From contig JAJDAE010000002.1 in the NCBI GenBank assembly GCA_029262035.1, positions 1-44,518 on the forward strand: 44,518 nt of DNA. Reading direction: 5' to 3'. The stretch comes from Candidatus Zhuqueibacterota bacterium. GTDB taxonomy: Bacteria > Zhuqueibacterota > Zhuqueibacteria > Oceanimicrobiales > Oceanimicrobiaceae. Positions 9,762 through 43,615 of this stretch are shown here, in pieces. Made by a program: the position numbers and the translations under genes. The number at the start of each line of letters is the position of its first letter. The first letter of the stretch is position 1. Below the pieces are notes generated by a model. The model was not told where the DNA came from and made no database searches. It saw nothing but the letters and a program-made list of their open reading frames with translations.

Positions 9762-9790
9762 TTGACTTATAAAAATACTTTCCCTATTAA
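9762..9790 (+). promoter_or_regulatory. Sigma70-like promoter for the small-basic-protein/sigma operon
   Basis: TTGACT (9762-9767) and TATTAA (9785-9790) are separated by exactly 17 bases, about 88 bases upstream of the GTG at 9878. This matches the general housekeeping -35/-10 pattern. It would transcribe the small basic protein gene and the sigma factor gene. Based on consensus match only. Confidence 0.5.
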
Positions 9791-9877
9791 CTATATATAT
9801 AAATGTAAAAGAGTTAAGTTCAAAAAGTCGCTCTTTATATTTTCATAACACAAATACCCATTAAAAAGGAAAACAAG

Positions 9878-10896: not shown

Positions 10897-11063
10897 CCAA
10901 AGTATACCGGCAAAACTCCGAAAGATGATCTTGAGATTCATTGTTCAAAGTTAGGAAAAATAGAATTAGAATATTGTAGAGAATCCGTTTTCAGAATAGT
11001 CGAAAGGTTTTGATTTGTAGATCAGTTAAACGGTTAATTGTAGAAACTCAATGGAGGTCCCCA

Positions 11064-20042: not shown

Positions 20043-21898
20043 CAGCTTTTTATTTCTTTATCCAGTAAAATAATCGCGTTCTTGGCCTTTTCAAAAAATA
20101 CCTGCATCGAACCATTTTCTGAATCACTCGCTGCAAATCGCTGAAAGTCACACGTCTGAAGGCATGCCAAATACTCAGCAACTGTTTGGTTACTGATCCC
20201 GCGTTCCTTCAGCATGTCGTCCACTTCATCCGTAATCAAACCAGCGGCAGAGACATTTAATTTGTCCCCAATAAAACCCATCAACGCATTCGAAACCTCA
20301 GCATAAAATTGTATAGAATCGCTATTTTTCATCTGCTGGCTTGCTGTTTTCAACTTCTTCAACGCCATCTGGTTGGCCTTACGGTTTCTGGCATAAGCAA
20401 CATTGGTACTCATTTTTTCTACGTGGCCTTGATATGCGAATGCACCCATCAGCGCAACCAAAGGCAAGAACAACAGCGCATAAAAAAACCAACTCTTATA
20501 AAATACATCACCTATTTCCTTAAATTCCGCCAAGCTTAAATGGATGTAGCGAATATCCTGCCCGATGAACTGAACGTCCTCTTTGGAGTTCCCAACGGCC
20601 AGATTAACAAACTGGTCATCGCCTTTTTCAACGGTTAAATTAATCTCGCTTGTTGCTGCCGTTTTATAGGTTTTTGAGGCCAAATCAAAATAGGCCAATG
20701 TAATTGGCTTAATGGTTTGATTACCCGGGAATCTTGGAATCACCACATATTCGAAAGTTTTTGAACCAAAAATTTGTTGACCATTTCTTTTGATACTTTC
20801 AATAATTTTGGGATCATAAACTTCAAAATCAGAGGGGAAATTGATTTTCGGCTGTGGAATGATTTTAATATTGCCTGTTCCAGACACTCTAACTTTTAGA
20901 GAAACAGCTTCGTTGGTTTTGGTATTTTGTTTGTCTACTGTTGCGCTTATTGAATATTTCCCCACTGCGCCGGAAAAGTTAACCGGCTTATTCTGAGCCG
21001 GCAACGGCAGTACATTCAGATCAAGCTCATTGGAAACAATCCGCTGTTTTGTCCTTCTGCCGAAATTAAAAAACGGATCATCAAAAATACTATCAAATGG
21101 ATCCCGGCGGGTTTTCCTTCGAGGTAACTGAACCTCACATTCCAATGCAAGAGGCTCTAATTGTTTATCTCCCGGACCTTGTGGAAACAGCGCAACTTTT
21201 TTCACTTCGGCAACACGAAACTCCCGCCCATTGATAACCTCATTAGTTATTCTTGGACGATTCGGCAGCTCAAAGTCTTCCGACCAAAAACCTACGAAAT
21301 TGGGTAGCTGTGCAATACCATAATTGCTTACATTTAAGGCTGTATAAATTTTGTATGAAATGATTACGGGCTCATTTTGATAAATAGTCCGTTTATTGGG
21401 TTCAGCTTTCAAATACAACAAGTCTGAAATATCACTCTCACCCGTCTGAGTATTTGCGTTGCGATTGGTCCGACGAGAGTTCTGCTGGCCCGTTGCGGGT
21501 TGTCCGGCGTTTACAATCTTTAAAATAAATGGCTCGGAACTGTAGTCCTGGCCTTTGTAAAAAACTTTAACCGCAGGTACAGCAAACTCACCTTTTTCTA
21601 CAGCAATATAATGATGAATATATTGCTTGGTTACAGACATCTTACCGTTGACATATTGCATGTTTGTAGAAGAACTACTACCAACAAAAGAAGCAAAACC
21701 ACCTAGATTGGGGGCATCAGGCTGCGGCGCAGAATTAGCATCCGAGCCGCTTAACTCAACAGTTAGTTGAAATTGTTGATTCAGAGGGATGTTAGTCTTG
21801 TCGGCGTAAACATTCAGGTGAATATCCTGCGCACCCAAAATGCTCGCCAGGCACAGGCTTATTAAAACAGATAAAATATTTTTCAGTGGAAATATCAT
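20042..21898 (-). CDS. batD: BatD: membrane protein with periplasmic Ig-like domains
   Basis: A 618-residue protein. A signal peptide ends near 'ILGAQD'; the large periplasmic part has the BatD signature 'VYADKTNIPLNQQFQLTVEL'. One transmembrane helix lies near residues 470-490, and a cytoplasmic C-terminal domain ends with 'LQTCDFQRFAAS'. The CD-x-x-[KR]-F motif is shared with the two BatD-like proteins at 24734 and 28610. I prefer the ATG at 21898; a TTG nine bases upstream in frame overlaps the batC stop and could serve instead. BatD is thought to be a periplasmic scaffold of the Bat system. Confidence 0.87.
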   Translation of the reverse strand: MIFPLKNILSVLISLCLASILGAQDIHLNVYADKTNIPLNQQFQLTVELSGSDANSAPQPDAPNLGGFASFVGSSSSTNMQYVNGKMSVTKQYIHHYIAVEKGEFAVPAVKVFYKGQDYSSEPFILKIVNAGQPATGQQNSRRTNRNANTQTGESDISDLLYLKAEPNKRTIYQNEPVIISYKIYTALNVSNYGIAQLPNFVGFWSEDFELPNRPRITNEVINGREFRVAEVKKVALFPQGPGDKQLEPLALECEVQLPRRKTRRDPFDSIFDDPFFNFGRRTKQRIVSNELDLNVLPLPAQNKPVNFSGAVGKYSISATVDKQNTKTNEAVSLKVRVSGTGNIKIIPQPKINFPSDFEVYDPKIIESIKRNGQQIFGSKTFEYVVIPRFPGNQTIKPITLAYFDLASKTYKTAATSEINLTVEKGDDQFVNLAVGNSKEDVQFIGQDIRYIHLSLAEFKEIGDVFYKSWFFYALLFLPLVALMGAFAYQGHVEKMSTNVAYARNRKANQMALKKLKTASQQMKNSDSIQFYAEVSNALMGFIGDKLNVSAAGLITDEVDDMLKERGISNQTVAEYLACLQTCDFQRFAASDSENGSMQVFFEKAKNAIILLDKEIKS

Positions 21899-21900
21899 TC

Positions 21901-22713
21901 TTACCAATCTTTACCCCGAAATGCACCTTTTGATATTTTTGTCTTCTTCTTTTTTAGAAGATCCTCCTCCTCATTTTTTAATGCATTGAGAATTCGCTCT
22001 GCGTCTTCTTTTGATATATCTTTCGGCTCACCTTTTTGCTCTTGCTGTTGCTCTTCTTCTTGTTGTTCTTGCTGGTCTTCGTTTTGTTGTTGTTGCTTTT
22101 GCTGTTCCTCCTCTTCACCATCCTGTTGTTCTTGCTGCTGTTGTTTTTCTTGATTCTCTTGCTGTTCCTGTTCTTGATCTTTTTGTTCTTCTTGATTCTG
22201 TTGTTGGTCTTGCTTCTGCTCTTGATTTTGCTTCTGGTCTTGATCCTGATTTTGCTTTTCAGATTCATCCTTCAGCTTTGCACGGACATATTCCATGTTG
22301 TATTTCGCGTCTTCATCATCGGGGTTTAACTCAAGCGCTTTTCTATAATGAAGAATGCTTTCCGGCATTTTTCCCATTTTGTACAATGTGTTACCCATAT
22401 TGTAGTAGTTTTTGGATTGCATCAAAATATCTTCAGATGACAAAGCAGTCTGGTATGACTTGAGAGCCTCTTCGTAGTTACTTTTTTTGTATTGCACATC
22501 GCCAATATTAAAATGCAAAATATCAGATTCCGGATGGTCCACCAAAGCATCCCGGTATTTCGTGTTGGCTTCGTCGTATTTTTGCTCCTCAAACAATTTA
22601 TTGGCCTCAGCGACCTTGCTGTTCATGCCTTGGCCAAATAAATTTGTAGCTGCTACCACAATAGTCAGAAAAATAAAAACCACTTTGTTCATACTTTTAC
22701 GGTTGTTAATCAT
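21901..22713 (-). CDS. batC: BatC: exported TPR protein with Gln/Glu-rich tail
   Basis: A 270-residue protein with a signal peptide (to about residue 27), TPR repeats at about 30-145 ('FNIGDVQYKKSNYEEALKSYQ' and 'YYNMGNTLYKMGKM') and a low-complexity Gln/Glu/Lys/Asp-rich block at about 150-235, before a short basic end. It matches BatC of the Bat operon, which is thought to be periplasmic. The repetitive CAA/GAA block is prone to slippage, so tail length may vary among strains. The ATG overlaps the batB stop (ATGA). Confidence 0.87.
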   Translation of the reverse strand: MINNRKSMNKVVFIFLTIVVAATNLFGQGMNSKVAEANKLFEEQKYDEANTKYRDALVDHPESDILHFNIGDVQYKKSNYEEALKSYQTALSSEDILMQSKNYYNMGNTLYKMGKMPESILHYRKALELNPDDEDAKYNMEYVRAKLKDESEKQNQDQDQKQNQEQKQDQQQNQEEQKDQEQEQQENQEKQQQQEQQDGEEEEQQKQQQQNEDQQEQQEEEQQQEQKGEPKDISKEDAERILNALKNEEEDLLKKKKTKISKGAFRGKDW

Positions 22714-23738
22714 TCAAACCTTCCACGCCATTCAGTTTTTGTTTTCACTCTTTCCGAAATAAAAAGTTCAATCAACAATAGGAATAATGCCAAAGCCACA
22801 AAGTACTGAAACCTATCCTCGTATTGTGAAAATTTCATAGAAGCCAGTTCCTTCTTTTCCATGTTTGAAACTTCCTCGTAGATTTGTTCCAGCTTGGTTT
22901 CACCAGTTACAGATTGATAATACTTTCCACTGCTGCTAAGCGCAATTTTTTCAAGCGTGACATGATCTAGCTTGGTCAAAATTATATTCCCCGCCCGATC
23001 CTTTTTGAAGTCCTTATTTCCAAATCTATCATACTCAGGTATGGGAACACCTTTCGGCGAACCAATACCAACCGTGTAAATAATCACTCCTTCCTGAGCC
23101 GCCGCCTTTGTAATATCCAGAACGTCATCGCCATGATCCTCTCCATCAGTAATCAAAACCAGAACTTTGTACTTGCGCTCCTGGCCTTCAAAACTCTTCA
23201 TAGCTACCGAAATTGCTTCGGTTAAGTTTGTACCCGGTTCCGGGATTAAATCCGGCTCCATAATATCCAGGAAGGTTTTTGCCGCGCCATAATCTAACGT
23301 TAAGGGACATTGTACAAACGCTTCTCCTGCAAAAGCAACGAGGCCTATGCGGTCTCCCCTGAGCAATTCGATAAAAGAAGAAATCTCATGTTTAGCTTTC
23401 GAGAGTCGGTTGGGTTTAATGTCTTCAGCAAGCATAGATTTAGAGACATCGAGCGCTATAAAAATGTCAAGTCCCTCTCTTTTCACTTCTTCCAGCTTAG
23501 TGCCAATTTGCGGACGCACGAGCGCCATCAGAATAAAGGCCAATCCCAAAACAATCAATATTGCTTTGAAGTTTTGCCTTTTTCGACTCACAGAAGCACT
23601 AAGTTTTTTCACCAAATCCATGTTCCCAAATCTGGCCATTGCATTTTTCTTCCAGCGAAAAACATAGAAATAAAACACCACGGCTGCCGGGATCAATAAA
23701 AATAGAAAAAATAAACTGTCGTTGCCAAACCGAATCAT
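22710..23738 (-). CDS. batB: BatB: membrane VWA-domain protein
   Basis: A 342-residue protein with transmembrane helices at about 10-27 and 60-78, a VWA domain at about 85-285 and a final helix at about 310-328. The metal-ion-dependent adhesion site is intact (Asp97-x-Ser99-x-Ser101 in 'ALDVSKSM'), as is the 'LITDGEDHGDDV' element. BatA and BatB are thought to pair through these domains in the periplasm. Three bases separate its start from the batA stop. Confidence 0.92.
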   Translation of the reverse strand: MIRFGNDSLFFLFLLIPAAVVFYFYVFRWKKNAMARFGNMDLVKKLSASVSRKRQNFKAILIVLGLAFILMALVRPQIGTKLEEVKREGLDIFIALDVSKSMLAEDIKPNRLSKAKHEISSFIELLRGDRIGLVAFAGEAFVQCPLTLDYGAAKTFLDIMEPDLIPEPGTNLTEAISVAMKSFEGQERKYKVLVLITDGEDHGDDVLDITKAAAQEGVIIYTVGIGSPKGVPIPEYDRFGNKDFKKDRAGNIILTKLDHVTLEKIALSSSGKYYQSVTGETKLEQIYEEVSNMEKKELASMKFSQYEDRFQYFVALALFLLLIELFISERVKTKTEWRGRFE

Positions 23739-23741
23739 ATT

Positions 23742-24734
23742 TTATGGAATCTTTCTAAATTTCGTGTTTGCTAAAGTTACTTCCGTGGCAACAAGAAATA
23801 ACGCCAGAAAAATAAACGGAGTGAACATCTCGCTAAAGCGGGTATACTGCTTCACTTCGATTTTTGTTTTTTCAAGTTGATCAATCTCGGCGAAAATGCC
23901 GGCAAGACTCTTTTTATCTGTTGCCCGGTAATATTTGCCATCCGTGATATTGGCAATTTCTTTCAAAGTTTTTTCATCAATTTGTACGGGCATTTGCACA
24001 TAACGTTTCCCGAAAATCGGATCGTTGACCGGATAAAGCGCATTGCCTTGTTTACCAACGCCAACAGTGTAAATCTTTATGTCGAAAGCATCCGCGACTT
24101 TTGCAGCGGTAATGGGATCCAACTCACCACGATTATTTTGTCCATCGGTCAATAGAATTAAAATTTTGCTTTTTGCCTTACTGTCACGCAGACGATTGCT
24201 GCCATTAGCAATAGCCATTCCAACCGCTGTACCATCCTCAATCATGCCGATTTCAACTTCCTGCAAAAAGTTAAGCAAGATGCCGTAATCCAGTGTAAGC
24301 GGACACTGAGTGAAGCTTTTTGCCGCAAATACAACCATGCCGATACGATCGCTCGTTCTGCCGTTTATAAAATCAGCCGCAACTAATTTTGCTGCACCCA
24401 AACGATTGTTTGGCCGAAAGTCTTCAGCAAGCATACTGCTTGAAATATCCAGCGCCAGCACAATATCCACACCTTCGGTAATAATTTCCTCCTCCGTGTG
24501 GCTGGATTGTGGACGCGCAAAACCAATTATCAACAGTGAAATAACAAGTACTCTGAGCACGAAAAGTACGTGTCGCAACTTCCGCTTCATCGATATTTTC
24601 TCAACAGATTTTGCGATATTTATGTTGGAATACTTTATAGTGCCCGAACGATTTTTTTGCTTTTTGAAATACCAATAAACCAACAGCGGCACCAAAATAA
24701 ACAGGAAAAGAAACTCAGGATTTGCAAACGTCAT
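23742..24734 (-). CDS. batA: BatA: membrane VWA-domain protein
   Basis: A 330-residue paralogue of BatB with the same order: helices at about 8-23 and 56-72, a VWA domain with Asp96-x-Ser98-x-Ser100 ('ALDISSSM') and 'LLTDGQNNRGE', and a last helix at about 308-325. MoxR ATPases commonly act on such VWA proteins. The ATG overlaps the stop of the preceding BatD-like gene (TAATG). Confidence 0.92.
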   Translation of the reverse strand: MTFANPEFLFLFILVPLLVYWYFKKQKNRSGTIKYSNINIAKSVEKISMKRKLRHVLFVLRVLVISLLIIGFARPQSSHTEEEIITEGVDIVLALDISSSMLAEDFRPNNRLGAAKLVAADFINGRTSDRIGMVVFAAKSFTQCPLTLDYGILLNFLQEVEIGMIEDGTAVGMAIANGSNRLRDSKAKSKILILLTDGQNNRGELDPITAAKVADAFDIKIYTVGVGKQGNALYPVNDPIFGKRYVQMPVQIDEKTLKEIANITDGKYYRATDKKSLAGIFAEIDQLEKTKIEVKQYTRFSEMFTPFIFLALFLVATEVTLANTKFRKIP

Positions 24735-25768
24735 TACTGCTCCACCCCAACGACTTCAACCTTATCATCTGCGCCGTCTTCCGGTTTTACCGTTGCAGGC
24801 TCTTCCGAGTTTTCAGAGTCCAGCTGGGAATCATAAATTAATTTGGTCTGTTCTACCAGGTCAAAAGCTTGACATAAGATCTTTTCTACTTCATCTGAGG
24901 AAGGTTTAAATTTTGCAAATTTAACCAAATCACACGATTCCAAAAACTCCTGAAACAAATCAATGTGCGGCTTTTCTAATTCAGCGCTCTGAAGTTCCTC
25001 AACCAATTCATGGGTTGTGAGCTCCAATGCAACAATGAAGTATCTGCCCTCGACATACTTGCGAATAATTTCAGACATGCGTATGTAAAAAGCTTTGAGC
25101 TTGCCTTCCTCTAATAATGTCGACTCTTTCAAAGCATTCAACTCTTCAAAGGCAATTTCGTGTGCCGGGCGAGGCGGTTCTACCTTAATTGGCAAAATTC
25201 CCTTGCCTAACCTTTTACGACGTAAAATATAGAATGAGACGCCCATTAAAATCAGGAAAGCCAACGCAATGCTCGACCATATAATAATTTTTCGCCAATC
25301 ACGAGGCAACTCAAGCGGCTGTTTAATATCTCGAATATCGCCGGCTTCACTCGGCTTTAAACTTTCAACAAGAATTTTTATTTCCTGCGTTTTAAGTGAG
25401 CTTTTAACTGTATCGTTTGGCACCGTAAAATAAAAAGTAAGCGGGGGAATTACAAATTCACCCACATCAAAAGTGGAGATAGTGTAAACTACACTTTCCA
25501 GAATACTCCCATCGACTTTTTGAGGATCCTGAACCTGATAATCCCGGATTTCGAAAGAACCCAGGTTCGCTCCTAATTCCGGCATTTCCAGCGTAACCTC
25601 AGAGGCTCTTTTCACCTCAACGGTGTACTTTATCAAATCACCTATTTTAATAGTGCTTTTGTCAACACGGGAATCGATAGATACAGAGTTGCCTGCAAAT
25701 AAAAATACAGCGAGTAAAAGATTAATAAGAATGAAGAACGCTCTAAGATGTTTAACCAAAATATTCAT
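24734..25768 (-). CDS. BatD-like membrane protein (second)
   Basis: A 344-residue protein with a signal peptide (residues 1-27), a periplasmic beta-rich domain to about residue 158 ('IDSRVDKSTIKIGDLIKYTV'), a transmembrane helix at about 161-182 and a cytoplasmic domain at about 205-310 containing 'LESCDLVKFAKF' (Cys279-Asp280). The cytoplasmic domain aligns without gaps with that of BatD and of the protein at 28610, while the periplasmic parts differ in length. It resembles DUF4381-type proteins found beside batA in other genomes. Its role is unknown; it may be a second scaffold. It overlaps batA by one base. Confidence 0.78.
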   Translation of the reverse strand: MNILVKHLRAFFILINLLLAVFLFAGNSVSIDSRVDKSTIKIGDLIKYTVEVKRASEVTLEMPELGANLGSFEIRDYQVQDPQKVDGSILESVVYTISTFDVGEFVIPPLTFYFTVPNDTVKSSLKTQEIKILVESLKPSEAGDIRDIKQPLELPRDWRKIIIWSSIALAFLILMGVSFYILRRKRLGKGILPIKVEPPRPAHEIAFEELNALKESTLLEEGKLKAFYIRMSEIIRKYVEGRYFIVALELTTHELVEELQSAELEKPHIDLFQEFLESCDLVKFAKFKPSSDEVEKILCQAFDLVEQTKLIYDSQLDSENSEEPATVKPEDGADDKVEVVGVEQ

Positions 25769-25773
25769 TTCAC

Positions 25774-26697
25774 TTATAATTTATCGTCATAAATTTCAAC
25801 AGCTTCTGCGCGCATCATTCGTTGGACAAGCAATTCGTAGGCTTCTTTCTGTTTTTCTAGAATTAAATCCTGCATCACTTGTGTACGAACTTCATCAAAT
25901 GGCTTAATCGATTTTGCATTCCCTTGCTTGTCGTTGACTGTATATTTTTCCCTGTTGGCCTTGTAATATAACTCAACATCGGACTCTGTAACATTGACAT
26001 TTTCGGAAATCTTTTCCTCGAGAAGTTTTTGCACCATCAAATTTTTCTTGGATTGAAACGCCCCTTCAATCACAGCTTTGTCTTTATCTAACCCTTGGCG
26101 TTTGGCAGAATCGTAAAAAAGTTCGGTTGCGATAAATTGCCGTAAAAAATCAGCCTTTTTTGATTTATCATCAAACTGAGCTCGGATATAAGGTGGCAAC
26201 TGAGAAATCTCAAACGCTAAATCGCCGGTAGTTATAGAACGCTTGCCAATTTTTGCGATGACTGCTCCTGGTCTCTTGGGTTTTGATTGTTCTGTATCAA
26301 GCAGCACCGACTCTTCCAAAACCTGTTGGGCGTCCGTGGAACGCTCAAGGCGCTCAAGACATTCAACCATTTTTTTATTCACGTCATCTATTAAATTGCT
26401 TTCAGGGTAGAAGTGCTTTATCTTCAATAAATAATTCAAAGCCTTTTCGTAATTACGCACTCTTTCAAAGTAAATATTTGCAATGGTGTAATTGATATTG
26501 GCGGCCTCAGAATCGGATGCATCATAATTATCCAGATAATAATTATACTCTGCAACAGACTGCGCATACAGCTGGTTATTATATAACGCACTGGCAAAAT
26601 CGCGAACATCTTCTGCATCTTGCTTTGGGCCGGAATTAAGCTGGCACCCATACAGTATCACCAAGCTCAGCATGTAAAATATTTTTTTTGAATTCAT
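25774..26697 (-). CDS. TPR lipoprotein with SurA-like chaperone domain
   Basis: A 307-residue lipoprotein (lipobox 'LYGC', Cys18). Residues about 25-130 form TPR-like repeats ('YAQSVAEYNYYLDNYDASDS', 'YTIANIYFERVRNYEKAL'). Residues about 143-235 resemble the SurA/PpiC N-terminal chaperone domain ('VIAKIGKRSITTGDLAFEIS' and 'FLRQFIATELFYDSAKRQGL'), followed by a helical C-terminus. No parvulin PPIase domain can be seen, so it is unlikely to isomerise proline. It may hold unfolded outer-membrane proteins or connect them to the Bat proteins. It sits five bases before the BatD-like gene and 27 bases after the DUF58 gene. Confidence 0.75.
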   Translation of the reverse strand: MNSKKIFYMLSLVILYGCQLNSGPKQDAEDVRDFASALYNNQLYAQSVAEYNYYLDNYDASDSEAANINYTIANIYFERVRNYEKALNYLLKIKHFYPESNLIDDVNKKMVECLERLERSTDAQQVLEESVLLDTEQSKPKRPGAVIAKIGKRSITTGDLAFEISQLPPYIRAQFDDKSKKADFLRQFIATELFYDSAKRQGLDKDKAVIEGAFQSKKNLMVQKLLEEKISENVNVTESDVELYYKANREKYTVNDKQGNAKSIKPFDEVRTQVMQDLILEKQKEAYELLVQRMMRAEAVEIYDDKL

Positions 26698-26724
26698 TTG
26701 AACTATCCCCTCTACGTTTTAGAT

Positions 26725-27603
26725 TTAATGAAACCGCTTGGCTCGGGCACGAAAAAACTTGATGAGCGGCTCAACATACGAGATGTCTGTACGAACATCA
26801 ATTGAATCTATACTCATTGAACGCAAGAGCTTATCGCGTTTTAATTTTAATTCTGAAGTCTCAGTATTAAACATTTGTCGCGTCATCACATCCGCAGAAT
26901 CAAGTAAAACAACTTCGCCGGTCTCAGCATCTTCAAGCTCAATTAAACCAATATCCGGTAAATCCATTTCCCGTGGATCTGTAATAGTAATTGCCACCAG
27001 GTCATGGCGTTTATTGGCAATTTGCATGGCCTTTTGGTAATCGGGTGAAATAAAATCGGATACCAAAAAAACTACTGCGCGTCGGTGCGTGATACGGCTC
27101 AAATATTCCAATGCCATAGAAATATCTGTGCCACGACCCTCAGGCTCATGATAGAGCAACTCGCGTAAAACCCGAAGTACATGTTTCTTCCCTTTTTTGG
27201 GTGGCACAAATTTTTCGATTCTATCGGTAAAAATGATAAGACCGACCTTATCATTATTTTTGATTGCAGAAAAAGCCAACAGGGCGCAGATTTCAATGGC
27301 GAGCTCGCCCTTCATTCGCTCAACAGTCCCAAAGTCACCGGACGAACTTACATCCACCAGCAGCATAACGGTCAGCTCACGCTCTTCTTCAAACACCTTA
27401 ACAAAAGGATGTCCCATCCTCGCCGACACATTCCAGTCGATGGTTCGCACGTCGTCACCATACTGGTACTCGCGCACCTCGGAAAACTCCATACCCCGAC
27501 CCTTAAAGACAGAATGATATTCTCCGGAAAGAACATCATTCACAAGCCCACGCGTTTGGATTTCAATGCGCTTAACTTTTTTCAGAATATCCTGAGGAAT
27601 CAT
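26725..27603 (-). CDS. DUF58 protein, MoxR-associated
   Basis: A 292-residue cytoplasmic protein with the DUF58 core 'YGDDVRTIDWNVSARMG' at about residues 48-64 and a VWA-like site Asp84-x-Ser86-x-Ser88 ('LLVDVSSSGD'). DUF58 proteins almost always sit beside MoxR ATPases and are thought to connect the ATPase to membrane VWA proteins. Its ATG overlaps the moxR stop (TAATG). Confidence 0.93.
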   Translation of the reverse strand: MIPQDILKKVKRIEIQTRGLVNDVLSGEYHSVFKGRGMEFSEVREYQYGDDVRTIDWNVSARMGHPFVKVFEEERELTVMLLVDVSSSGDFGTVERMKGELAIEICALLAFSAIKNNDKVGLIIFTDRIEKFVPPKKGKKHVLRVLRELLYHEPEGRGTDISMALEYLSRITHRRAVVFLVSDFISPDYQKAMQIANKRHDLVAITITDPREMDLPDIGLIELEDAETGEVVLLDSADVMTRQMFNTETSELKLKRDKLLRSMSIDSIDVRTDISYVEPLIKFFRARAKRFH

Positions 27604-28592
27604 TAAGGCACTTCGATTTTATTCAGCACTTTACGAACAACATCTTCAGAGGTCATTTCTTCAGCCTCCGCCTCGTATGTCACAATGACACGGTGGCGCA
27701 GAACATCCATGCCGATGGAACGAATATCCTCAGGTGTTACGTAACCTCTTCTTCTTAAAAATGCGTGTGCCTTAGCAGCCTGATGCAGATAGATTGATGC
27801 ACGTGGCGATGCGCCAAATGCGATCAAACCCTGGAGCTCGTCTAAACCGTACTCTTTGGGATTTCTTGTTGCAAATACAATATCTATAATATAGTTTTCG
27901 ATTTTTTCATCAATATAAACTTCATTAACAACTGAACGCGCCGCAATGATATCTTTTGGTGTAACAACCGGTTTGGGTTCAATTTTCTCTCCTGTGGACA
28001 TACGCCGCATGACCTCAAGTTCTTCACTTTTTTGAGGATAACCCACGGAAAGCTTTAACATAAACCGATCAACCTGGGCTTCAGGCAGCGGGTAAGTTCC
28101 TTCCTGTTCGATGGGGTTTTGAGTTGCTAAAACCAAAAAAGGATCATCCAGCGGGAAGGTATTATTCCCGATGGTCACCTGACGTTCCATCATGGCCTCC
28201 AACAGCGCAGATTGCACTTTTGCAGGGCTGCGGTTGATTTCATCTGCCAAAACCAAATTTGAAAAAATTGGGCCTTTTTTTGTAGTAAAGTCGCCCTTTT
28301 TCTGATCATAAATTAATGTTCCAAGCAAATCAGCCGGTAATAAATCCGGTGTAAACTGAATACGCTGAAACTTAGTTTTAATAGTAGACGATAAGGTGTT
28401 TACTGTCAGAGTTTTCGCCAGACCCGGTACACCCTCGAGCAGAACATGGCCATTGGCAAGCAGGCCAATTAAAAGCCGCTCAATCATATACTTCTGCCCA
28501 ACAATTACCTTCGATACTTCGTTGGTAATTTTATCTATAAATTCGCTTTCTTTTTTTATCTTTTCGTTTATGGCTTCAATATCTACTGCCAT
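27603..28592 (-). CDS. moxR: MoxR-family AAA+ ATPase
   Basis: A 329-residue AAA+ protein. Walker A is 'GVPGLAKT' at residues 54-61, Walker B 'LVLADEINRS' is near 112-121, and sensor/arginine elements follow in 'LATQNPIEQEGTYPLPEAQ' and 'DRFMLKL'. The C-terminal lid contains 'GASPRASIYLHQAAKA'. MoxR proteins act as chaperones that remodel VWA-containing complexes. It is the second gene of the operon, 17 bases after the first BatD-like gene. Confidence 0.95.
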   Translation of the reverse strand: MAVDIEAINEKIKKESEFIDKITNEVSKVIVGQKYMIERLLIGLLANGHVLLEGVPGLAKTLTVNTLSSTIKTKFQRIQFTPDLLPADLLGTLIYDQKKGDFTTKKGPIFSNLVLADEINRSPAKVQSALLEAMMERQVTIGNNTFPLDDPFLVLATQNPIEQEGTYPLPEAQVDRFMLKLSVGYPQKSEELEVMRRMSTGEKIEPKPVVTPKDIIAARSVVNEVYIDEKIENYIIDIVFATRNPKEYGLDELQGLIAFGASPRASIYLHQAAKAHAFLRRRGYVTPEDIRSIGMDVLRHRVIVTYEAEAEEMTSEDVVRKVLNKIEVP

Positions 28593-30503: not shown

Positions 30504-32417
<1,914 letters not shown>

Positions 32418-32675: not shown

Positions 32676-32945
32676 TCAATCTTTTTTAGAAGAACCGGAA
32701 GAGCTTTTAGTTTCTGATTTATTCTTTGCAGTTTTTGTATCCGTTGAAGAGGAACTTTTCGGATTCTTCTTATAATCTGTGATATAAAAACCAGACCCCT
32801 TAAAAATCAATCCGTTTCCAGCACCTATCAATTTTTTTACAGTTCCCTTACACTCAGGACAGCTATCGAGTGGGTCGGCTGTTATGCTGTGAAAAGCCTC
32901 AAACTGATGGCTACAGTCGTTACAAAAATAATCGTATGTTGGCAT
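32676..32945 (-). CDS. FmdB-family zinc-ribbon protein
   Basis: An 89-residue protein. Cys8, Cys11, Cys29 and Cys32 form two CxxC knuckles ('FCNDCSH' and 'CPECKG'), followed by 'KGSGFYITDYK', the typical FmdB end. A Ser/Lys-rich tail follows. FmdB-family proteins are presumed regulators or zinc-binding adaptors without firm function. It follows htrA by 29 bases and ends at a strong terminator, so it is the last gene of the DnaJ-like/HtrA/FmdB group. Confidence 0.9.
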   Translation of the reverse strand: MPTYDYFCNDCSHQFEAFHSITADPLDSCPECKGTVKKLIGAGNGLIFKGSGFYITDYKKNPKSSSSTDTKTAKNKSETKSSSGSSKKD

Positions 32946-32974: not shown

Positions 32975-34501
32975 TTACTTCGGCACTTTCATTGCGATAA
33001 AATGATTGTTCCCACCGCGTTTAACCTGAAACAAAACAATGCTTTCCGGTGAAAGATCGTTTGTTATACTTTCAACATCTCGAACATTTTTTACTCTGTG
33101 TCTATCTACCTCAACAATTAAGTCGCCATGGCGCATTCCTTTTTCTGCAGCCAGGCTGCCGGATTTAACGTCAGTAATAATAACGCCTTTCAAATCCTCA
33201 TAGCCATATCTTTCAGCAAGCTCTGATGTTAAATTGCGTGTCGTTAATCCCAGTTTATCCAGAACACTTTCTTCACTAGGGGTAGAAGACTGACTCACAT
33301 TATTATCGTCTCCGGGTCTTCTTTCCAACTTGACGGATATACTTTTTTCTTTACCATCTCTAATCACGTTAAGTTTAACAACATCATCAGGCTTGTATGA
33401 GGCGATGATATTGGTGAGTGTTTGTGAGTCCGATATTTTTTTGCCATCGACGTCAACAATTACATCATATTTTTCAAGTCCAGCCTTAGCAGCAGGCGTA
33501 CCTTCAACTACCTGAGTTACAACAGCACCTTCATTATCGTCAATTTTTAGGGCTTCACTCAATTCAGCATCAACAGTATTAATAAAAACTCCAAGATAGC
33601 CGCGAACAACCTCACCATGTTTAATTAGGTCATCCATTACGTTTTTTGCTAAATTAACCGGAACCGCAAAACCAATTCCGATATTGCCACCACCATTTCC
33701 AGCATAAATTGCAGAGTTTATTCCAATTAATTCGCCACGGACGTTAACCAGTGCCCCACCGCTATTTCCGGGATTTATTGCAGCATCAGTTTGAATAAAA
33801 TCCTGATAGGTTAACTCGCCGCTCAAATTAAGGGTTCTTCCTTTCGCACTAATAATTCCGGAAGTTACAGTATGCTGAAGCCGTAAATCAAAAGGACTTC
33901 CTATAGCCAAAACCCATTCCCCAACCTCAATTTTATCGGAGTTCCCAATAGAAATTGATGTTAAGTTCTGCGTATCTATCTTTATTACAGCAATATCTGT
34001 AGCCGGGTCAGTACCAACAACTTTTGCATTGAACGATTTCCTATCAATCATTACGTTAATTTCATCAGCATCTTTAATAACGTGATAATTTGTTAGAATG
34101 TAACCATCTGGCGACACAATAACTCCAGAACCCAAACCACGTTGCTTATATTCTTGCCCACCCTCTGGTGACCGAAAGAACCTCTTGAAAAAATCATCTT
34201 TTTGCATGAAATTAGAGAAAGGATGTTTAACTTTAACCATCTTTTCACTGGTAATTGAAACAACAGCCGGAGTTACCCTTTTTGCAATTTCAACAAAAGC
34301 CCGACTTGTTGACTCAATATCCGAATTTATTTGTTCCACAGGTTCTACAGTCGCTTTGGCAACTGAGTTTATTGCTGTATTTGAGTCGTTACCAGCAAAA
34401 CCATTTTGTGTTAAACTTAAATTTGAGGCGATAACCAACCCAAAAATCAACCCGACAAATACTGACAAGATTATAACCGCAGCTCTTTTATTATTTTGCA
34501 T
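32975..34501 (-). CDS. htrA: HtrA/DegP-family periplasmic serine protease
   Basis: A 508-residue protease. An N-terminal hydrophobic segment (about residues 8-25) anchors or exports it. The catalytic triad is His140 ('NYHVIKD'), Asp169 ('DPATDIAVI') and Ser247 ('NPGNSGG'). Two PDZ domains follow, at about 295-385 ('GYLGVFINTV', 'GTPAAKAGL') and 420-505. It degrades or refolds misfolded envelope proteins. GGAGG lies seven bases before the ATG. Transcribed with or near the J-domain gene, and its product fits the envelope theme of the window. Confidence 0.95.
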   Translation of the reverse strand: MQNNKRAAVIILSVFVGLIFGLVIASNLSLTQNGFAGNDSNTAINSVAKATVEPVEQINSDIESTSRAFVEIAKRVTPAVVSITSEKMVKVKHPFSNFMQKDDFFKRFFRSPEGGQEYKQRGLGSGVIVSPDGYILTNYHVIKDADEINVMIDRKSFNAKVVGTDPATDIAVIKIDTQNLTSISIGNSDKIEVGEWVLAIGSPFDLRLQHTVTSGIISAKGRTLNLSGELTYQDFIQTDAAINPGNSGGALVNVRGELIGINSAIYAGNGGGNIGIGFAVPVNLAKNVMDDLIKHGEVVRGYLGVFINTVDAELSEALKIDDNEGAVVTQVVEGTPAAKAGLEKYDVIVDVDGKKISDSQTLTNIIASYKPDDVVKLNVIRDGKEKSISVKLERRPGDDNNVSQSSTPSEESVLDKLGLTTRNLTSELAERYGYEDLKGVIITDVKSGSLAAEKGMRHGDLIVEVDRHRVKNVRDVESITNDLSPESIVLFQVKRGGNNHFIAMKVPK

Positions 34502-34596: not shown

Positions 34597-35481
34597 TCAC
34601 GTCAACTCTATTTTAACGTATTGGTCACCTTGATTGTCTTTTGTTTTTACTCCCATTCCCTTTAGCCTAAACGTTTTATTTTCAATTGTGTTGGGAGGGA
34701 TTTTTAATTCAACACTATTGCCATAAACGGTTTTCACACGCACAATAGTACCCTTTTTAGCCTTCTTTTTTTGCAAGGGAATCTCACAATTTATGTCCAT
34801 TCCATCCAAACGGAAAAACTTATGAGGAGCGACTTTAATTTTAACGATAAGATCTCCCTGGGCACGTCCATCCAGATCACCTTTCCCATGTCCGGAAAGT
34901 CTCAGCTTCTTGCCCTCGTTTGTACCGGCTGCAATATTTAACGAAAACTGTCTTTCCCCTTTTTCAGCTACTCGAAATACTACCTTGCCGCCATTCACGG
35001 CTGTTGCAAATGGTATCTCAAGAGTGGTATTAATGTCAAAATGATTACGAACACCATTTCTTGTTTTTGCATTGCCCGGCTGTTTATCGAAAAGTTGACT
35101 GAACAAATCACCCAGTCCACCTAAACCAAGCATATCGTCAAAATTACTATCACTAGATTTGTATCTCGGCCTTCTACCTGCTTGTGCTTGATTAAAAATC
35201 TCACTAAAATCAAAATCGAGGCCAGGCTGATTAAATCCATTAGTTCTTCTGTTACTCCCATAACCTAACCGCCTGAGTTGATCGTATTGACGTCGCTTTT
35301 TTGAATCACTTAAAACATTATAAGCCTCAGAAACCTCTTTAAATTTTTCCTCTGCTTGTTGATCGCCAGGATGTGCATCGGGATGGCATTCTTTTGCTAA
35401 TTTCCTGTATGCCTTTTTAATAACATCCGCAGTAGCACTTTCTGCGACATCCAAAATTTTATAAAGATCTTTTTGAGACAT
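34597..35481 (-). CDS. J-domain protein of CbpA type
   Basis: A 294-residue co-chaperone. The J domain has the essential His33-Pro34-Asp35 ('ECHPDAHPGD'). A Gly/Asp/Phe-rich linker is at about residues 75-130, and the two C-terminal substrate domains follow. There is no cysteine-rich zinc finger between them, so this is a type-II (CbpA-like) protein rather than canonical DnaJ. It stimulates an Hsp70 such as the DnaK encoded 2 kb away. Located 95 bases before htrA in the same direction. Confidence 0.93.
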   Translation of the reverse strand: MSQKDLYKILDVAESATADVIKKAYRKLAKECHPDAHPGDQQAEEKFKEVSEAYNVLSDSKKRRQYDQLRRLGYGSNRRTNGFNQPGLDFDFSEIFNQAQAGRRPRYKSSDSNFDDMLGLGGLGDLFSQLFDKQPGNAKTRNGVRNHFDINTTLEIPFATAVNGGKVVFRVAEKGERQFSLNIAAGTNEGKKLRLSGHGKGDLDGRAQGDLIVKIKVAPHKFFRLDGMDINCEIPLQKKKAKKGTIVRVKTVYGNSVELKIPPNTIENKTFRLKGMGVKTKDNQGDQYVKIELT

Positions 35482-35637: not shown

Positions 35638-35805
35638 CTATTTTTTATGATCGCGAATGAGAGTGAAAGCAAGGTAAAGAAGTGCTATCCCTGGTATTAT
35701 TGGCAAAACAAGTCCAACCAAGCCAATAACTATCAACAATGGTACTAATTTAGTTTTCTCATGCCGGAACTCGCGGAGAACATCAAGTAATCTTTTTTTA
35801 GCCAA
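35638..35805 (-). CDS. Small membrane protein, 55 residues
   Basis: A TTG-initiated frame, with an in-frame stop three codons upstream so no earlier start exists. The basic N-terminus is about 20 residues ('AKKRLLDVLREFRHEKTK'). A single transmembrane helix follows with 'GLVGLVLPIIPGIALLYL', whose Gly-Leu-Val-Leu-Pro-x-x-Pro-Gly pattern resembles the PGPGW-type small membrane proteins, and the end is basic. No strong ribosome site is seen. It begins 15 bases after the STAS-HATPase gene, so it may be co-translated with it. Function unknown. Confidence 0.55.
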   Translation of the reverse strand: MAKKRLLDVLREFRHEKTKLVPLLIVIGLVGLVLPIIPGIALLYLAFTLIRDHKK

Positions 35806-35820: not shown

Positions 35821-36822
35821 TTAATTAGATGCTTGAGGAAGGTATTTTATCAGCGTTAATCGATTTCCACGCTTTGGATCGGGACGATAATCTATTTCAT
35901 TCATAGAACGACTTATTATGTAAAGCCCAAAACCACCTGTTTGTCGACCATCCATTGCAGACATAACATCATATTGCTTTTCTGAAAAGCCTTCGAAACC
36001 TGTACCATAATCTTGAAGAATTATCTTGAATATTTCTTCATTATATTCAATCCAAACATCGATCCAATTTTCAGGGCTTGAATGATACGCATGTTCGATT
36101 ATATTCAAGCAGGCCTCATAAATTGCAATTTTAATTTTTCCAACTTCTTTAGAGTCAAACCCTGCCCTTGAGGCATAATTCGTCACGAAGTCACAAATTG
36201 TGTAAAGATAGTTGTTACTGCTTTCTACTTTCAGGTGATTTCGTTCCCCTTTTCTGTTTTGTATTTCAGCTGGAGGGGTCGTTATCTGTGGCTCAGCTTC
36301 CGGCTGACCCTCAACGTACTGATCTTGTAGCTTTTCGATTATAGGATCTTCAACAATATCCACGGAGGAAAAAACTTGTTCAGACTCTTCAGTTGGCGTT
36401 TCGATTTTGTTATCACTTTCGATGGGAATTGTACTCTGCTCTGTATCATTTTGTAATTCAGCGTGAAAATCATTCAATGCGCTGGTTTCATCCTCAATCA
36501 ATGAAAGATAATTACCCGGAGAAAATGTTTCCAGATTGTTTTTTGCAGATGAAGCCAGATTATTAATTTTAACATCTCCGTCCAAACGACGCGCTCTTGA
36601 AGTTACTTCCAGTAGCAAAGCAATTAATGATGTGTTTGGATACTCTACATTTTCAAGATCTACAACAAATTTCCTGTAACCTTTTTGAAGACAATTATCA
36701 AATGTGTCTTTTAGAACATCAAAAACGAAACTGGCGTCATCGATATTGCCTAACGGGATTCGGACAACATCATCATATCCTTCAACAATTTCGTAAGCAA
36801 TTTTCAGGTCATTCATAGGCAT
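35821..36822 (-). CDS. STAS - HATPase fusion: anti-anti-sigma and anti-sigma kinase domains in one chain
   Basis: A 333-residue cytoplasmic protein. Residues about 5-115 form a STAS domain whose phospho-acceptor loop reads 'YPNTSLIALL' (Ser65 is the likely target, as in SpoIIAA D-S-S). A 90-residue acidic linker follows. Residues about 200-328 form an RsbW/SpoIIAB-type GHKL ATPase: N-box 'EACLNIIEHAY' (Glu236, Asn240, His244), G1 'DYGTGFEG' (Asp271) and G2 'GGFGLYII' (296-303). In the classical switch these domains are separate proteins controlling a sigma factor. No partner sigma is adjacent. Start is either Met1 or Met3; neither has a clear ribosome site. Confidence 0.85.
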   Translation of the reverse strand: MPMNDLKIAYEIVEGYDDVVRIPLGNIDDASFVFDVLKDTFDNCLQKGYRKFVVDLENVEYPNTSLIALLLEVTSRARRLDGDVKINNLASSAKNNLETFSPGNYLSLIEDETSALNDFHAELQNDTEQSTIPIESDNKIETPTEESEQVFSSVDIVEDPIIEKLQDQYVEGQPEAEPQITTPPAEIQNRKGERNHLKVESSNNYLYTICDFVTNYASRAGFDSKEVGKIKIAIYEACLNIIEHAYHSSPENWIDVWIEYNEEIFKIILQDYGTGFEGFSEKQYDVMSAMDGRQTGGFGLYIISRSMNEIDYRPDPKRGNRLTLIKYLPQASN

Positions 36823-36917: not shown

Positions 36918-38594
36918 CTAGTCACCACCCGAATTTAGCATTTCTTCCTTTAGAACCCGCCTTAAAACTTTCCCAATATTACTCTTAGGCAAGGATTCCC
37001 TGAACTCTACAGATTTAGGTCTTTTAAAAGATGCTAAATTACTTTTACAGAATGCAAGAATTTCATCAACCGTGATTGATTTACCCTTCTTACAAACGAT
37101 GAATGCCATGACCGTTTCCCCTCTATACTCATCAGGAATTCCAACAACTGCAGCTTCTTCTATATCGGGATGTTCAAACAAAACTTCTTCAATTTCTCGC
37201 GGATAAATATTAAATCCGCCGGCAATTATCATATCTTTCTTGCGGTCCAAAATATAAAAAAAACCATCTTCATCCATTTTTGCCATATCACCGGTAAACA
37301 GCCAGCCATCTTTTAAAACCTGCTCTGTCTCACTTTCCATTTTCCAGTAGCCCTGCATAACTTGCGGCCCCTTTACCGCTAATTCCCCCAACTCACCAAC
37401 AGCCAGAACCTCTTTTGTTTCCGGGTCAACTATTCGGGCGTCGGTATTTGGTACAGGCATACCAATAGCGCCCTCTTTACGTAAACCCTTCAGCGCGTTG
37501 GCGTGGGTTACAGGAGACGTTTCCGATAAACCATAACCTTCAATCAACTTACCTTTTGAAATATCTTCAAATTTTCTTGCTACTTCAAGAGGCAAAGCAG
37601 CGCCGCCACTTATGCAGCCCTTAATTGAAGAAAGATCATATTTTTCAATTTTGGGAAAATTATTAATTGCAATATACAAGGTCGGGACGCCAGGAAAGAG
37701 TGTAGCCTTTTCTTTTTGAATTGCATTGAGCACAGCTTTAAGATCCCGAGGATTCGGAATTAAAATCATTTTTGATTTTATATAAACAGCCATGTGTAAA
37801 CAAGTTGTCAATCCGTAACTATGAAAAAAGGGCAGTGCAGATAGTATGGCTTCTTTCTTTTCTTCCACGAAACAATACCATGCACATGTTTGCATTACGT
37901 TGGCAATAAGATTTTGGTGGGTTAAAACTGCTCCTTTCGAGAGTCCTGTTGTTCCGCCTGTATAAAGTAAAATCGCTATATCGCCAGGTTTAACCTCCAA
38001 GTCAGGCAAATCAAAAGGAAACGGTTCGGTTAACAAATCGTTGAAAAAATGAACGCCTGGCAAACGCGGCACTTTTGTATAGTACCCACTCTTTTTTGCT
38101 TTTATCGGATAAAAAACTTTTAAATGAAAGGGTAAAAATTCACTAATTTTATTTATGATGATACACCGTAGAGAGGTACTCTCTTTAATAGCTGCAACTT
38201 TAGGATAATATATATCCAAAGTAATGATGATTTCGGCACCACTATTATTGATTTGATATGCCAACTCTCTTTCAACATAAAGTGGATTTGTTGGCACTAA
38301 AATGCCTCCAACGCGCAAAATTGCAAAATGAAAAATTACATACTGTGGAATATTCGGGAGCATGAGGGCAACGCGATCGCCCTTTTTTAGGCCAAGCCTT
38401 ATCAGCGCTTTCGAGAATTGTTTTACATACTTTTCAAGCTCGGAATAAGTTATTCTTGTTCCAAAATAATAAATTGCATCTACATTTGGCGAATTATTTA
38501 CAGCATCTTCAAAAATTTGATTTAATGAGATGTCCTGAAAGTCAATTGACTCGGGAACCCCATTATCATAATGCTGTAACCAGGGACGATTCAT
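36918..38594 (-). CDS. Long-chain acyl-CoA synthetase, AMP-forming
   Basis: A 558-residue adenylate-forming enzyme. The ATG at 38594 has an AGGA site, and the protein begins with 'MNRPWLQHYDNGVPESID', typical for FadD-type ligases; the upstream in-frame ATG lacks support. The P-loop is 'LLYTGGTTGLSKGAVLTH', followed by 'GYGLSETSPVTHAN', the 'GDMAKMDEDGFFYILDRKKD' hinge and the catalytic Lys region 'LPKSNIGKVLRR' near the C-terminus. It activates fatty acids as acyl-CoA, probably at the inner membrane. It stands alone on the minus strand between the TPR gene and the STAS-HATPase gene. Confidence 0.94.
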   Translation of the reverse strand: MNRPWLQHYDNGVPESIDFQDISLNQIFEDAVNNSPNVDAIYYFGTRITYSELEKYVKQFSKALIRLGLKKGDRVALMLPNIPQYVIFHFAILRVGGILVPTNPLYVERELAYQINNSGAEIIITLDIYYPKVAAIKESTSLRCIIINKISEFLPFHLKVFYPIKAKKSGYYTKVPRLPGVHFFNDLLTEPFPFDLPDLEVKPGDIAILLYTGGTTGLSKGAVLTHQNLIANVMQTCAWYCFVEEKKEAILSALPFFHSYGLTTCLHMAVYIKSKMILIPNPRDLKAVLNAIQKEKATLFPGVPTLYIAINNFPKIEKYDLSSIKGCISGGAALPLEVARKFEDISKGKLIEGYGLSETSPVTHANALKGLRKEGAIGMPVPNTDARIVDPETKEVLAVGELGELAVKGPQVMQGYWKMESETEQVLKDGWLFTGDMAKMDEDGFFYILDRKKDMIIAGGFNIYPREIEEVLFEHPDIEEAAVVGIPDEYRGETVMAFIVCKKGKSITVDEILAFCKSNLASFKRPKSVEFRESLPKSNIGKVLRRVLKEEMLNSGGD

Positions 38595-38616
38595 CCTTTT
38601 CCTGTATAATTGTAAT

Positions 38617-38653
38617 AAAAAAAACACCCACCCTAAAAATTAGGAAATGGGTG
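38617..38653 (-). terminator. Rho-independent terminator after the TPR gene
   Basis: CACCCA (38625-38630) pairs with TGGGTG (38648-38653), with a second inner stem CCTAA/TTAGG, and a run of U follows on the minus strand, directly after the TPR gene at 38683. Confidence 0.8.
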
Positions 38654-43165: not shown

Positions 43166-43262
43166 GGAAGATAAAGGAGATTAGGATTAAACACAAATAA
43201 AAAAATGCAGGGAGTGGTGATTTCAATTTTTCACTCCTGGTAGTATCAGAAACTTTGTGTAA

Positions 43263-43490
43263 CTACCGAATAAATGGGGAGACGTTTTCAAGAACCTCCT
43301 TTAACTTCTCGTTTTTTATGGTTTTTGTTGCCGATTTATTATTTTTAACTGCCCTTTTACCATTTTTAACTGCGGCTTTACCATTTTTGGCAGATGGGAT
43401 ATCATTTTTAACCGCCGGTTTACCATTTTTGTCAGACGGAATACCACTTTTAAGTGAACCACAGCCATTTTTAACTGCGGCTGAATCATT
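43263..43490 (-). pseudogene. Decayed heptad-repeat ORF (K-N-G-K-x-A-V repeats)
   Basis: On the minus strand, between an in-frame TAA at 43491 and a TAG at 43263, 75 codons encode seven-residue repeats, for example KNGKPAV, KNGKAAV, KNGKRAV and KNNKSAT, and then a non-repeat tail KNEKLKEVLENVSPFIR. There is no ATG, GTG or TTG in this frame, and further in-frame stops occur in the upstream units, so the gene seems to have lost its N-terminus. Frames offset from this one are also open but give Met-Lys-rich or Leu-Pro-Phe-rich peptides without a sensible tail. I do not recognise the family. Confidence 0.45.
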
Positions 43491-43571
43491 TTATGGTGCC
43501 TCTCAGTCATTTTCGGGCGTGCTGTGCTGATTTTGGGACAACTCATAGTCATTGGGTGGTTGCCTGCATAA
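43320..43571. repeat. 21-bp degenerate tandem array, about 12 units
   Basis: ATTTTT-type blocks recur at exactly 21-base spacing at 43341, 43362, 43383, 43404, 43425, 43446, 43467, 43488, 43509, 43530 and 43551, with a less clear unit at 43320. The best units read ATTTTTAACTGCGGCTTTACC (21-bp). There are no insertions or deletions in the phase, although the units have diverged. It overlaps the decayed heptad-repeat ORF, whose seven-codon period it explains. Confidence 0.8.
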
Positions 43572-43615
43572 TTTTTTTGGCAAACGAGCATGGATTTATG
43601 CTACGATAGAATTAT

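What the first reader, a model, noticed from the sequence alone, without database searches (positions are those of the whole stretch)
35821..36822. STAS domain and RsbW-type kinase fused in one protein
The antagonist (STAS, Ser65 in a NTS loop) and its kinase (N-box Glu236/Asn240/His244, G1, G2 all intact) are normally separate proteins of a partner-switch. Fusion through an acidic 90-residue linker suggests self-phosphorylation in cis or between chains, with no free STAS protein to titrate a kinase. No sigma factor or PP2C phosphatase gene lies next to it.
Basis: partly seen in the sequence, partly recalled or inferred. Interest (0 to 1): 0.58.

Follow-up and report, generated by a model that had tools for sequence, protein, structure and literature searches.

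The report
STAS–RsbW fusion beside chaperone genes
A bacterial stress-switch protein in which the "antagonist" and its kinase are joined in one chain is real and old in this little-known phylum, usually sits beside protein-repair genes, and its joined antagonist has often lost the site that the kinase would mark.

Summary
The ORF is real: window 35821-36822 (-), 333 aa, a STAS domain, a disordered acidic linker of about 65 aa and an RsbW/SpoIIAB-type kinase with intact ATP-site motifs. It is no sequencing artefact. The same fusion was recovered from 71 of 82 genomes held of this phylum (candidate division KSB1) and follows host families on a tree. The residue aligned with the RsbV phospho-serine is Thr64, not Ser65, and it is Ser/Thr in only 25 of 68 fused STAS domains, while free STAS partners in the same genomes keep it in 20 of 20. 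The catalytic Glu and Asn are invariant (71 of 71). So an intact kinase is tethered to a STAS domain that usually cannot be its substrate. Free STAS proteins and PP2C phosphatases abound elsewhere in the genome. Downstream lie chaperone/protease genes (HtrA, DnaJ, DnaK, GrpE, Zn-peptidase, ClpB) in 34 of 45 loci with enough flank; upstream 0 of 44. Best reading: the tethered STAS regulates the kinase, which acts on another STAS protein, as reported for SipA, CapK and VapK. The architecture is not new; the phylum-wide family, its decayed acceptor and its chaperone linkage are.

The parts
35821..36822 (-). STAS-linker-RsbW-type kinase fusion, 333 aa
   Evidence: ORF; Pfam; NCBIfam (RsbW 67 bits, below cut-off 145); same fusion in 71 of 82 genomes of the phylum
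36439..36804 (-). STAS domain (residues 7-128 incl. C-terminal helix); Arg78 and Phe100 invariant in 68 of 68 fused STAS domains
36631..36633 (-). Thr64 codon, equivalent of the RsbV/SpoIIAA phospho-serine
   Evidence: RsbV Ser56 from PMC7340262 passage
36628..36630 (-).
36250..36438 (-). acidic, disordered linker (residues 129-191); length varies 12-283 aa among members
   Evidence: pLDDT under 50 at 135-160 and 162-190; composition
36328..36360 (-). short linker motif DIVEDPIIEKL (residues 155-165), predicted helix 161-165, shared in families f1, f6, f8, f15
35830..36249 (-). RsbW/SpoIIAB-type GHKL kinase domain (residues 192-331): N-box Tyr235-Glu236...Asn240...His244, Asp271-x-Gly273, Gly296-Gly297-x-Gly299
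36918..38627 (-). upstream neighbour: AMP-binding (acyl-CoA ligase type) enzyme
   Evidence: Pfam; synteny
35638..35805 (-). downstream small ORF (54-55 aa), one hydrophobic stretch by eye, recurrent next to the fusion
   Evidence: (no Pfam match)
34597..35481 (-). DnaJ/CbpA-type co-chaperone
   Evidence: Pfam
32975..34501 (-). HtrA/DegP-type protease with PDZ domains
   Evidence: Pfam
32676..32945 (-). FmdB-type zinc ribbon protein
   Evidence: Pfam
30504..32405 (-). DnaK (named from its sequence; not scanned)
   Evidence: ORF; synteny

Best explanation
It is a single-chain STAS-RsbW regulator, an old and vertically inherited family of this phylum. Shown by sequence: an RsbW-type kinase with every ATP-site residue kept, tethered by a flexible acidic linker to a STAS domain that keeps its fold and two invariant residues (Arg78, Phe100) but in most members lacks the phospho-acceptor. 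Inferred: the tethered STAS is not the kinase's substrate but its built-in regulator (docking, sensing or blocking part). The kinase site works in trans on a separate STAS protein, several of which are encoded elsewhere and presumably reset by one of the many SpoIIE/PP2C phosphatases. Inferred from gene order: the output bears on proteostasis genes (HtrA, DnaJ, DnaK, GrpE, Zn-peptidase, ClpB).
For: Kinase invariance: Glu236 71/71, Asn240 71/71, Asp271 71/71, Gly273 69/71, Tyr235 70/71. Acceptor column 64: S16 T9 of 68, else P17 A11 G5 N4 D3 V2 I1, with at least 15 changes on the protein tree; free STAS partners keep YISSAGLG in 20 of 20 genomes picked for this and in this genome. Domains not fixed to each other in the models: pTM 0.46, and 0.53 for a member with a 19-aa linker. 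Genome: 19 of 20 SpoIIE matches over cut-off, 18 of them strong; 10 short STAS-only frames among 17 PF01740 matches. Proteostasis gene within 8 kb downstream in 34 of 45 loci with at least 7 kb in hand, every one co-directional, upstream side 0 of 44. Published precedents: SipA (N-terminal STAS, C-terminal RsbW domain; the kinase domain binds its own STAS and the STAS of the sigma factor SsdA, on opposite faces in the authors' AlphaFold models; PMC10733313 passages); CapK (HTH-STAS-GHKL) phosphorylates a separate STAS protein CapS, and its ssDNA activator is modelled between its own STAS and kinase domains; VapK is STAS-GHKL (PMC13373217 section 11 and passages).
Against: No trans substrate, sigma factor or phosphatase could be assigned; none is adjacent in any of 71 loci, unlike SipA-SsdA, CapK-CapS and VapK-VapS, which are neighbours. 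25 of 68 members, this one included, keep Ser/Thr at position 64 and 47 of 68 at position 65, so a substrate role may survive in some lineages. Eleven of 45 loci show no proteostasis gene downstream, including 7 of families outside the window's class, and shared gene order among relatives is one inherited event, not 34 independent ones. The AlphaFold2 runs are single-chain and say nothing on dimers.
Confidence: 0.5

Rival explanations
1. Self-phosphorylating switch: the kinase phosphorylates its own or its dimer mate's STAS, as reported for Rv1364c, and a PP2C encoded elsewhere resets it.
For: Thr64 and Ser65 are both hydroxyl here; kinase motifs intact; Rv1364c autophosphorylates Ser600 of its own STAS (PMC10950880 passage); 47 of 68 members keep S/T at position 65; many SpoIIE phosphatases in the genome.
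Against: Acceptor-equivalent position non-hydroxyl in 43 of 68, neither position hydroxyl in 14 of 68, while the kinase stays invariant. No fused phosphatase, unlike Rv1364c.
Confidence: 0.2
2. Locked cis antagonist: the tethered STAS occupies the kinase/anti-sigma surface without being phosphorylated; a signal (chaperone, unfolded protein or a free STAS) pulls it away and frees the domain to hold a sigma factor.
For: Strong conservation at the STAS end of helix 3 (Phe100 68/68, Leu106 65/68, Pro102 55/68), the region whose counterpart in RsbV includes residues (Arg84, Arg87, Ile91) that contact RsbW (PMC7340262 passage). In SipA the two domains of one protein bind each other and the N-terminal STAS hinders binding of the partner.
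Against: RsbV Arg84/Arg87 are Ser92/Asn95 here by my reading of the alignment, and these columns vary; models show no fixed docking; kinase catalytic residues would not need to be invariant.
Confidence: 0.2
3. Not a sigma/STAS switch at all: the GHKL domain is an ATPase or protein kinase of the chaperone/protease machinery, with STAS as a protein- or lipid-binding module.
For: Gene order with DnaJ, HtrA, DnaK, GrpE, Zn-peptidase; no adjacent partner-switch genes; stand-alone paralogues of this STAS, also without acceptor, beside a UbiA prenyltransferase gene.
Against: Best matches of the kinase are RsbW and SpoIIAB by sequence and fold, fused precisely to their usual partner domain.
Confidence: 0.08

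Closest known systems
SipA of Actinoplanes missouriensis (with sigma-SsdA)
   Same: N-terminal STAS, C-terminal RsbW-like kinase domain in one chain; kinase domain binds its own STAS and a second STAS in trans (PMC10733313, abstract and passages read)
   Different: The partner sigma factor carries a STAS domain and lies adjacent or one gene away; found in Micromonosporaceae; tied to sporangium dehiscence. Here no adjacent sigma factor or STAS gene, a chaperone/protease neighbourhood, another phylum. SipA's sequence was not compared.
CapK / VapK (HTH-STAS-GHKL and STAS-GHKL kinases)
   Same: STAS before an anti-sigma-type kinase in one chain; substrate is a separate STAS protein (PMC13373217, section 11 and passages)
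   Different: Encoded next to their STAS substrate and immune or toxin genes, CapK activated by ssDNA; CapK has an HTH. Sequences not compared here.
Rv1364c of Mycobacterium tuberculosis
   Same: RsbW-type kinase and STAS in one chain; its kinase domain is a fold match (3ke6, Z 14.0)
   Different: Order PAS-PP2C-kinase-STAS with a built-in phosphatase; autophosphorylates its STAS (PMC10950880 and PMC12143880 passages)
LvrC of Leptospira
   Same: N-terminal regulatory domain fused to an RsbW-type domain (9qih, Z 14.6 over the kinase domain)
   Different: The regulatory domain is a receiver (Rec), not STAS (PMC13269768 passages)
RsbV-RsbW / SpoIIAA-SpoIIAB
   Same: Both folds; RsbW 6m37 Z 18.1, SpoIIAA 1h4x Z 10.2
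   Different: Separate proteins; acceptor Ser kept; sigma factor partner. The window's organism also has such a separate trio

Membership tests
RsbW/SpoIIAB-type serine kinase (domain level) | GHKL fold with N-box Glu/Asn, DxGxG and GGxG | tested here: met
   HATPase_c_2 above cut-off; Z 18.1 to RsbW; motifs invariant or nearly so in 71 members
RsbW equivalog (NCBIfam NF003144/TIGR01924) | score above curated cut-off | tested here: not met
   67.3 of 145 bits and 58.1 of 155 bits
STAS domain | STAS fold and profile match | tested here: met
   fold Z about 10-11 to TM1081, SpoIIAA, RsbS; profile-profile match to free STAS; single-sequence Pfam scores below cut-off
Canonical anti-sigma antagonist (RsbV/SpoIIAA) | phosphorylatable Ser/Thr at the acceptor position, conserved | tested here: not met
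   present as Thr64 in this protein, but 43 of 68 family members lack Ser/Thr there
Canonical partner-switch operon | adjacent genes for STAS, kinase, sigma factor or PP2C | tested here: not met
   none in 71 loci by BLAST with this genome's own members, E under 1e-3
STAS-GHKL fusion regulators (SipA, VapK, CapK type) | STAS N-terminal to an anti-sigma-type kinase in one ORF | tested here: met
   one ORF in 68 of 71 recovered loci, 3 cut by contig ends
STAS-GHKL fusion regulators (SipA, VapK, CapK type) | partner STAS protein encoded adjacent or nearly so | tested here: not met
STAS-GHKL fusion regulators (SipA, VapK, CapK type) | kinase binds or phosphorylates a STAS partner in trans | not testable with these tools
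   needs biochemistry
Rv1364c-type | PP2C phosphatase in the same chain | tested here: not met
   no such match in the 333 aa

The most novel reading that the evidence does not exclude
A phylum-wide partner switch devoted to protein quality control: a kinase permanently tethered to a mostly non-phosphorylatable pseudo-antagonist STAS domain that senses folding stress (through a chaperone or an HtrA/Zn-peptidase product, perhaps via the linker motif) and passes the signal in trans to a free STAS protein that controls the DnaK/DnaJ/GrpE/HtrA/ClpB genes beside it.
Probability: 0.22. Interest if true: 0.68.

Novelty: new variant of a known kind. Interest (0 to 1): 0.44.

Why it matters
Textbook partner switching rests on separate antagonist and kinase whose binding flips on phosphorylation. 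Here a whole phylum keeps both in one chain, keeps the kinase sites invariant and lets the acceptor in the tethered antagonist decay, while the same genomes keep an ordinary separate pair with its acceptor unchanged. That separates two STAS roles, substrate and regulator, by natural variation, and the gene order names a testable output (proteostasis) in organisms without a known heat-shock control circuit (the last point is recalled, not searched).

Tried and rejected
Sequencing or assembly error splitting or joining two genes: rejected; 68 of 71 recovered loci have both domains in one ORF, three are cut by contig ends, and for one of these (G024) the missing STAS half sits at the end of another contig.

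Chance STAS match: single-sequence Pfam scores are below cut-off, but fold and profile comparisons agree; rejected.

Cognate sigma factor: the SigB/F/G family model gives 15 matches in the genome, 0 over its cut-off (best 127 of 234 bits); it points to five full-length sigma-70 genes but to none as partner. Inconclusive: the cut-off is passed by 1 of 14 control genomes only.

Fixed intramolecular docking: not seen in AlphaFold2 models; single-chain only, so inconclusive.

Plasmids: only 3 of 72,556 records match, each over 35-41% of the protein, on the kinase half.

Wider distribution: 306 genomes of other phyla gave 0 matches at E 1e-45 or better with the family profile. That threshold was set above the scores of separate pairs in this phylum, so weaker or independent fusions would be missed, and two were: G196 and G333. 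A search with G333's protein over 388 genomes found full-length matches only in those two. Of the out-of-phylum hits, I opened 6 (G196, G333, G295, G154, G361, G098).

Literature: searches found no report of this family in KSB1; the library holds only open-licence PMC papers, so absence is weak.

Full report
WHAT IS THERE. The window is the whole of contig 2 of a 5.31-Mb, 372-contig genome. A relative of the same family, G002, appears to be the record named candidate division KSB1 bacterium isolate OFTM153: contig length and position agree. The ORF 35821-36822 (-) encodes 333 aa without interruption. Residues 201-326 match HATPase_c_2 (E 3.4e-22); residues 36-90 match STAS_2 and STAS weakly, below the curated cut-offs. 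RsbW and SpoIIAB are the solved relatives by sequence. AlphaFold2 on 39 family members gives two confident domains and a stretch under pLDDT 50 at 135-160 and 162-190. VIA-align gives RsbW Z 18.1, SpoIIAB about 17-18, TM1081 Z 11.2, SpoIIAA Z 10.2. So both domains are real.

THE FAMILY. A search of 60 relatives and of all 82 genomes held of the phylum, followed by fetching the loci, gave 71 members including the window. In 68 both domains can be aligned in one ORF; three (G024, G037, G058) are cut by contig ends on the STAS side, and G043 is cut within the kinase. Eleven of 82 genomes gave no fused member (G006, G045, G046, G050, G060, G067, G069, G073, G077, G078, G081); nine of these are 56-84% complete, two are 95-96%. 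The protein tree (quick method, SH-aLRT only) groups members largely by host family, which points to vertical inheritance; several deep forks are open. Linker length, counted between residues 127 and 193 of the window protein, ranges from 12 to 283 aa, median 42, and is net acidic in 56 of 69.

ACCEPTOR SITE. The free STAS protein of this genome (L094) aligns without gaps with RsbV around the site so that the second Ser of Y-I-S-S-A-G-L-G faces the Ser of M-D-S-T-G, which is RsbV Ser56, phosphorylated by RsbW (PMC7340262, one passage). The same free STAS aligns with the window protein so that this Ser faces Thr64 and the following Ala faces Ser65. The profile of 40 fused STAS domains aligned with SpoIIAA gives the same register. 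Column 64 in 68 members: P17 S16 A11 T9 G5 N4 D3 V2 I1. Column 65: S43 R7 K5 T4 A3 G2 D2 N1 E1. Both hydroxyl in 18, only 64 in 7, only 65 in 29, neither in 14. Fewest changes on the tree: 15 for column 64, 7 for column 65. Control: adjacent separate STAS and kinase genes in 20 of 20 chosen genomes carry YISSAGLG, as does this genome. Kinase residues by contrast are invariant: Glu236 71/71, Asn240 71/71, Asp271 71/71, Gly273 69/71, Tyr235 70/71. In the STAS part the two invariant residues are Arg78 and Phe100 (68/68 each). Arg78 has a counterpart in the free STAS; Phe100 does not.

SURROUNDINGS. In this window the order, all on the minus strand, is gap, tpi, secG, a TPR protein, an AMP-binding enzyme, the fusion, a small ORF, DnaJ, HtrA, an FmdB zinc ribbon, DnaK (gap, tpi, secG and DnaK named from sequence, not scanned). 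Among 45 loci with at least 7 kb downstream in hand, HtrA lies within 8 kb in 29, DnaJ in 24, DnaK in 22, Zn_peptidase_2 in 19, FmdB in 17, GrpE in 9, ClpB in 6; at least one of HtrA, DnaJ, DnaK, GrpE, Zn-peptidase or ClpB in 34; every one co-directional. On the upstream side none of these occurs in 44 loci with at least 5 kb in hand. The 11 misses are G008, G013 (f2), G025 (f11), G044 (f7), and G061, G063, G068, G070, G071, G074, G075, which belong to other classes of the phylum; yet other such genomes (G062, G064, G065, G066) have the Zn-peptidase and an HtrA-cluster gene directly downstream. BLAST with this genome's sigma factor, free STAS, RsbW and SpoIIE found none of them among the neighbours, apart from the window's own sigma factor at 10036-10896, about 25 kb away.

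ELSEWHERE IN THE GENOME. 20 SpoIIE matches, 19 over cut-off. 17 PF01740 matches, 16 over cut-off, the fusion being the one below; 10 lie in frames of 110-165 aa. 14 HATPase_c_2 matches, 11 over cut-off including the fusion. A textbook trio of STAS (116 aa), RsbW (146 aa) and GAF-SpoIIE-type phosphatase genes lies on contig 259. So substrates and phosphatases in trans are plentiful.

MECHANISM. An enzyme domain under strong constraint beside an acceptor under little constraint argues that the tethered STAS is not, or no longer, the main substrate. Published proteins with this layout work so: CapK phosphorylates a separate STAS protein and is activated by ssDNA modelled in the groove between its own STAS and kinase domains, VapK has the same layout (PMC13373217: abstract, section 11 and passages), and in SipA the kinase domain binds both its own STAS and the STAS of its sigma factor, on opposite faces in the authors' models (PMC10733313: abstract and passages). 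I therefore propose a regulator STAS in cis and a substrate STAS in trans. The trans partner, the signal and the output are inferred, the output from gene order alone.

WHAT IS KNOWN AND WHAT IS NEW. The fusion as such is not new: SipA (2023) has the same domain order, Rv1364c the reverse order with a phosphatase, LvrC a receiver in place of STAS. The authors of SipA wrote that they knew of no protein of similar domain structure. New here, as far as the searches named under Tried and rejected go: a phylum-wide family, decay of the acceptor against an invariant kinase with an in-genome control, linkage to chaperone and protease genes, and a conserved short motif in the linker of three or four families (20 of 71 by a pattern written after seeing it; mean 0.12, at most 1, in 200 shuffles; one further member, G027, has a variant that the pattern misses).

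CAUTIONS. Members are related, so counts of genomes are not counts of events. The 20 control genomes were chosen, not drawn at random. All genomes but one are unnamed here and many are draft assemblies. Pfam support for STAS in the single sequence is sub-threshold. No biochemistry bears on this family.

Noticed in passing
L233-L242 (genomes G028, G010, G034, G043, G015, G031, G046, G020, G022, G037): Stand-alone STAS proteins (frames of 115-134 aa), close relatives of the fused STAS (E 1e-24 to 1e-29), in families f4 and f9 only, each directly downstream of a UbiA-type prenyltransferase gene; by eye 0 of 10 have Ser/Thr at the acceptor equivalent. In family f2 the fused gene itself follows a gene that looks like the same prenyltransferase. 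(Pfam for one).
   Followed up: partly
L243 2096-3127 and L244 1642-2721 (genomes G196, G333, another phylum): An apparently independent STAS-RsbW fusion with four cysteines (CPFC...CPKC, zinc-ribbon-like) between the domains and a kept canonical acceptor motif YLSSTGIG..
   Followed up: partly
window 36328-36360: Short conserved motif [DE]I[VA][ED]xP..L in the otherwise disordered linker of families f1, f6, f8 and f15; a possible docking peptide.
   Followed up: partly
L094 1251-3831 (G000 contig 259): Canonical separate STAS, RsbW and SpoIIE-type phosphatase genes of the same organism; a Lon-like protease gene lies on the same 11-kb stretch at 9591-10955.
   Followed up: no
window 19290-28592: Run of vWA, MoxR-type ATPase, DUF58-like and TPR genes that looks like a Bat-type operon (named from sequence, not tested).
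   Followed up: no
window 43255-43591: Low-complexity ORFs on both strands with a short repeated unit (PKM/LKM-like); may be a tandem repeat tract. Not tested.
   Followed up: no
window 10036-10896: RpoD-like sigma factor; a second gene of the same genome (contig 371) is 73% identical to it.
   Followed up: no
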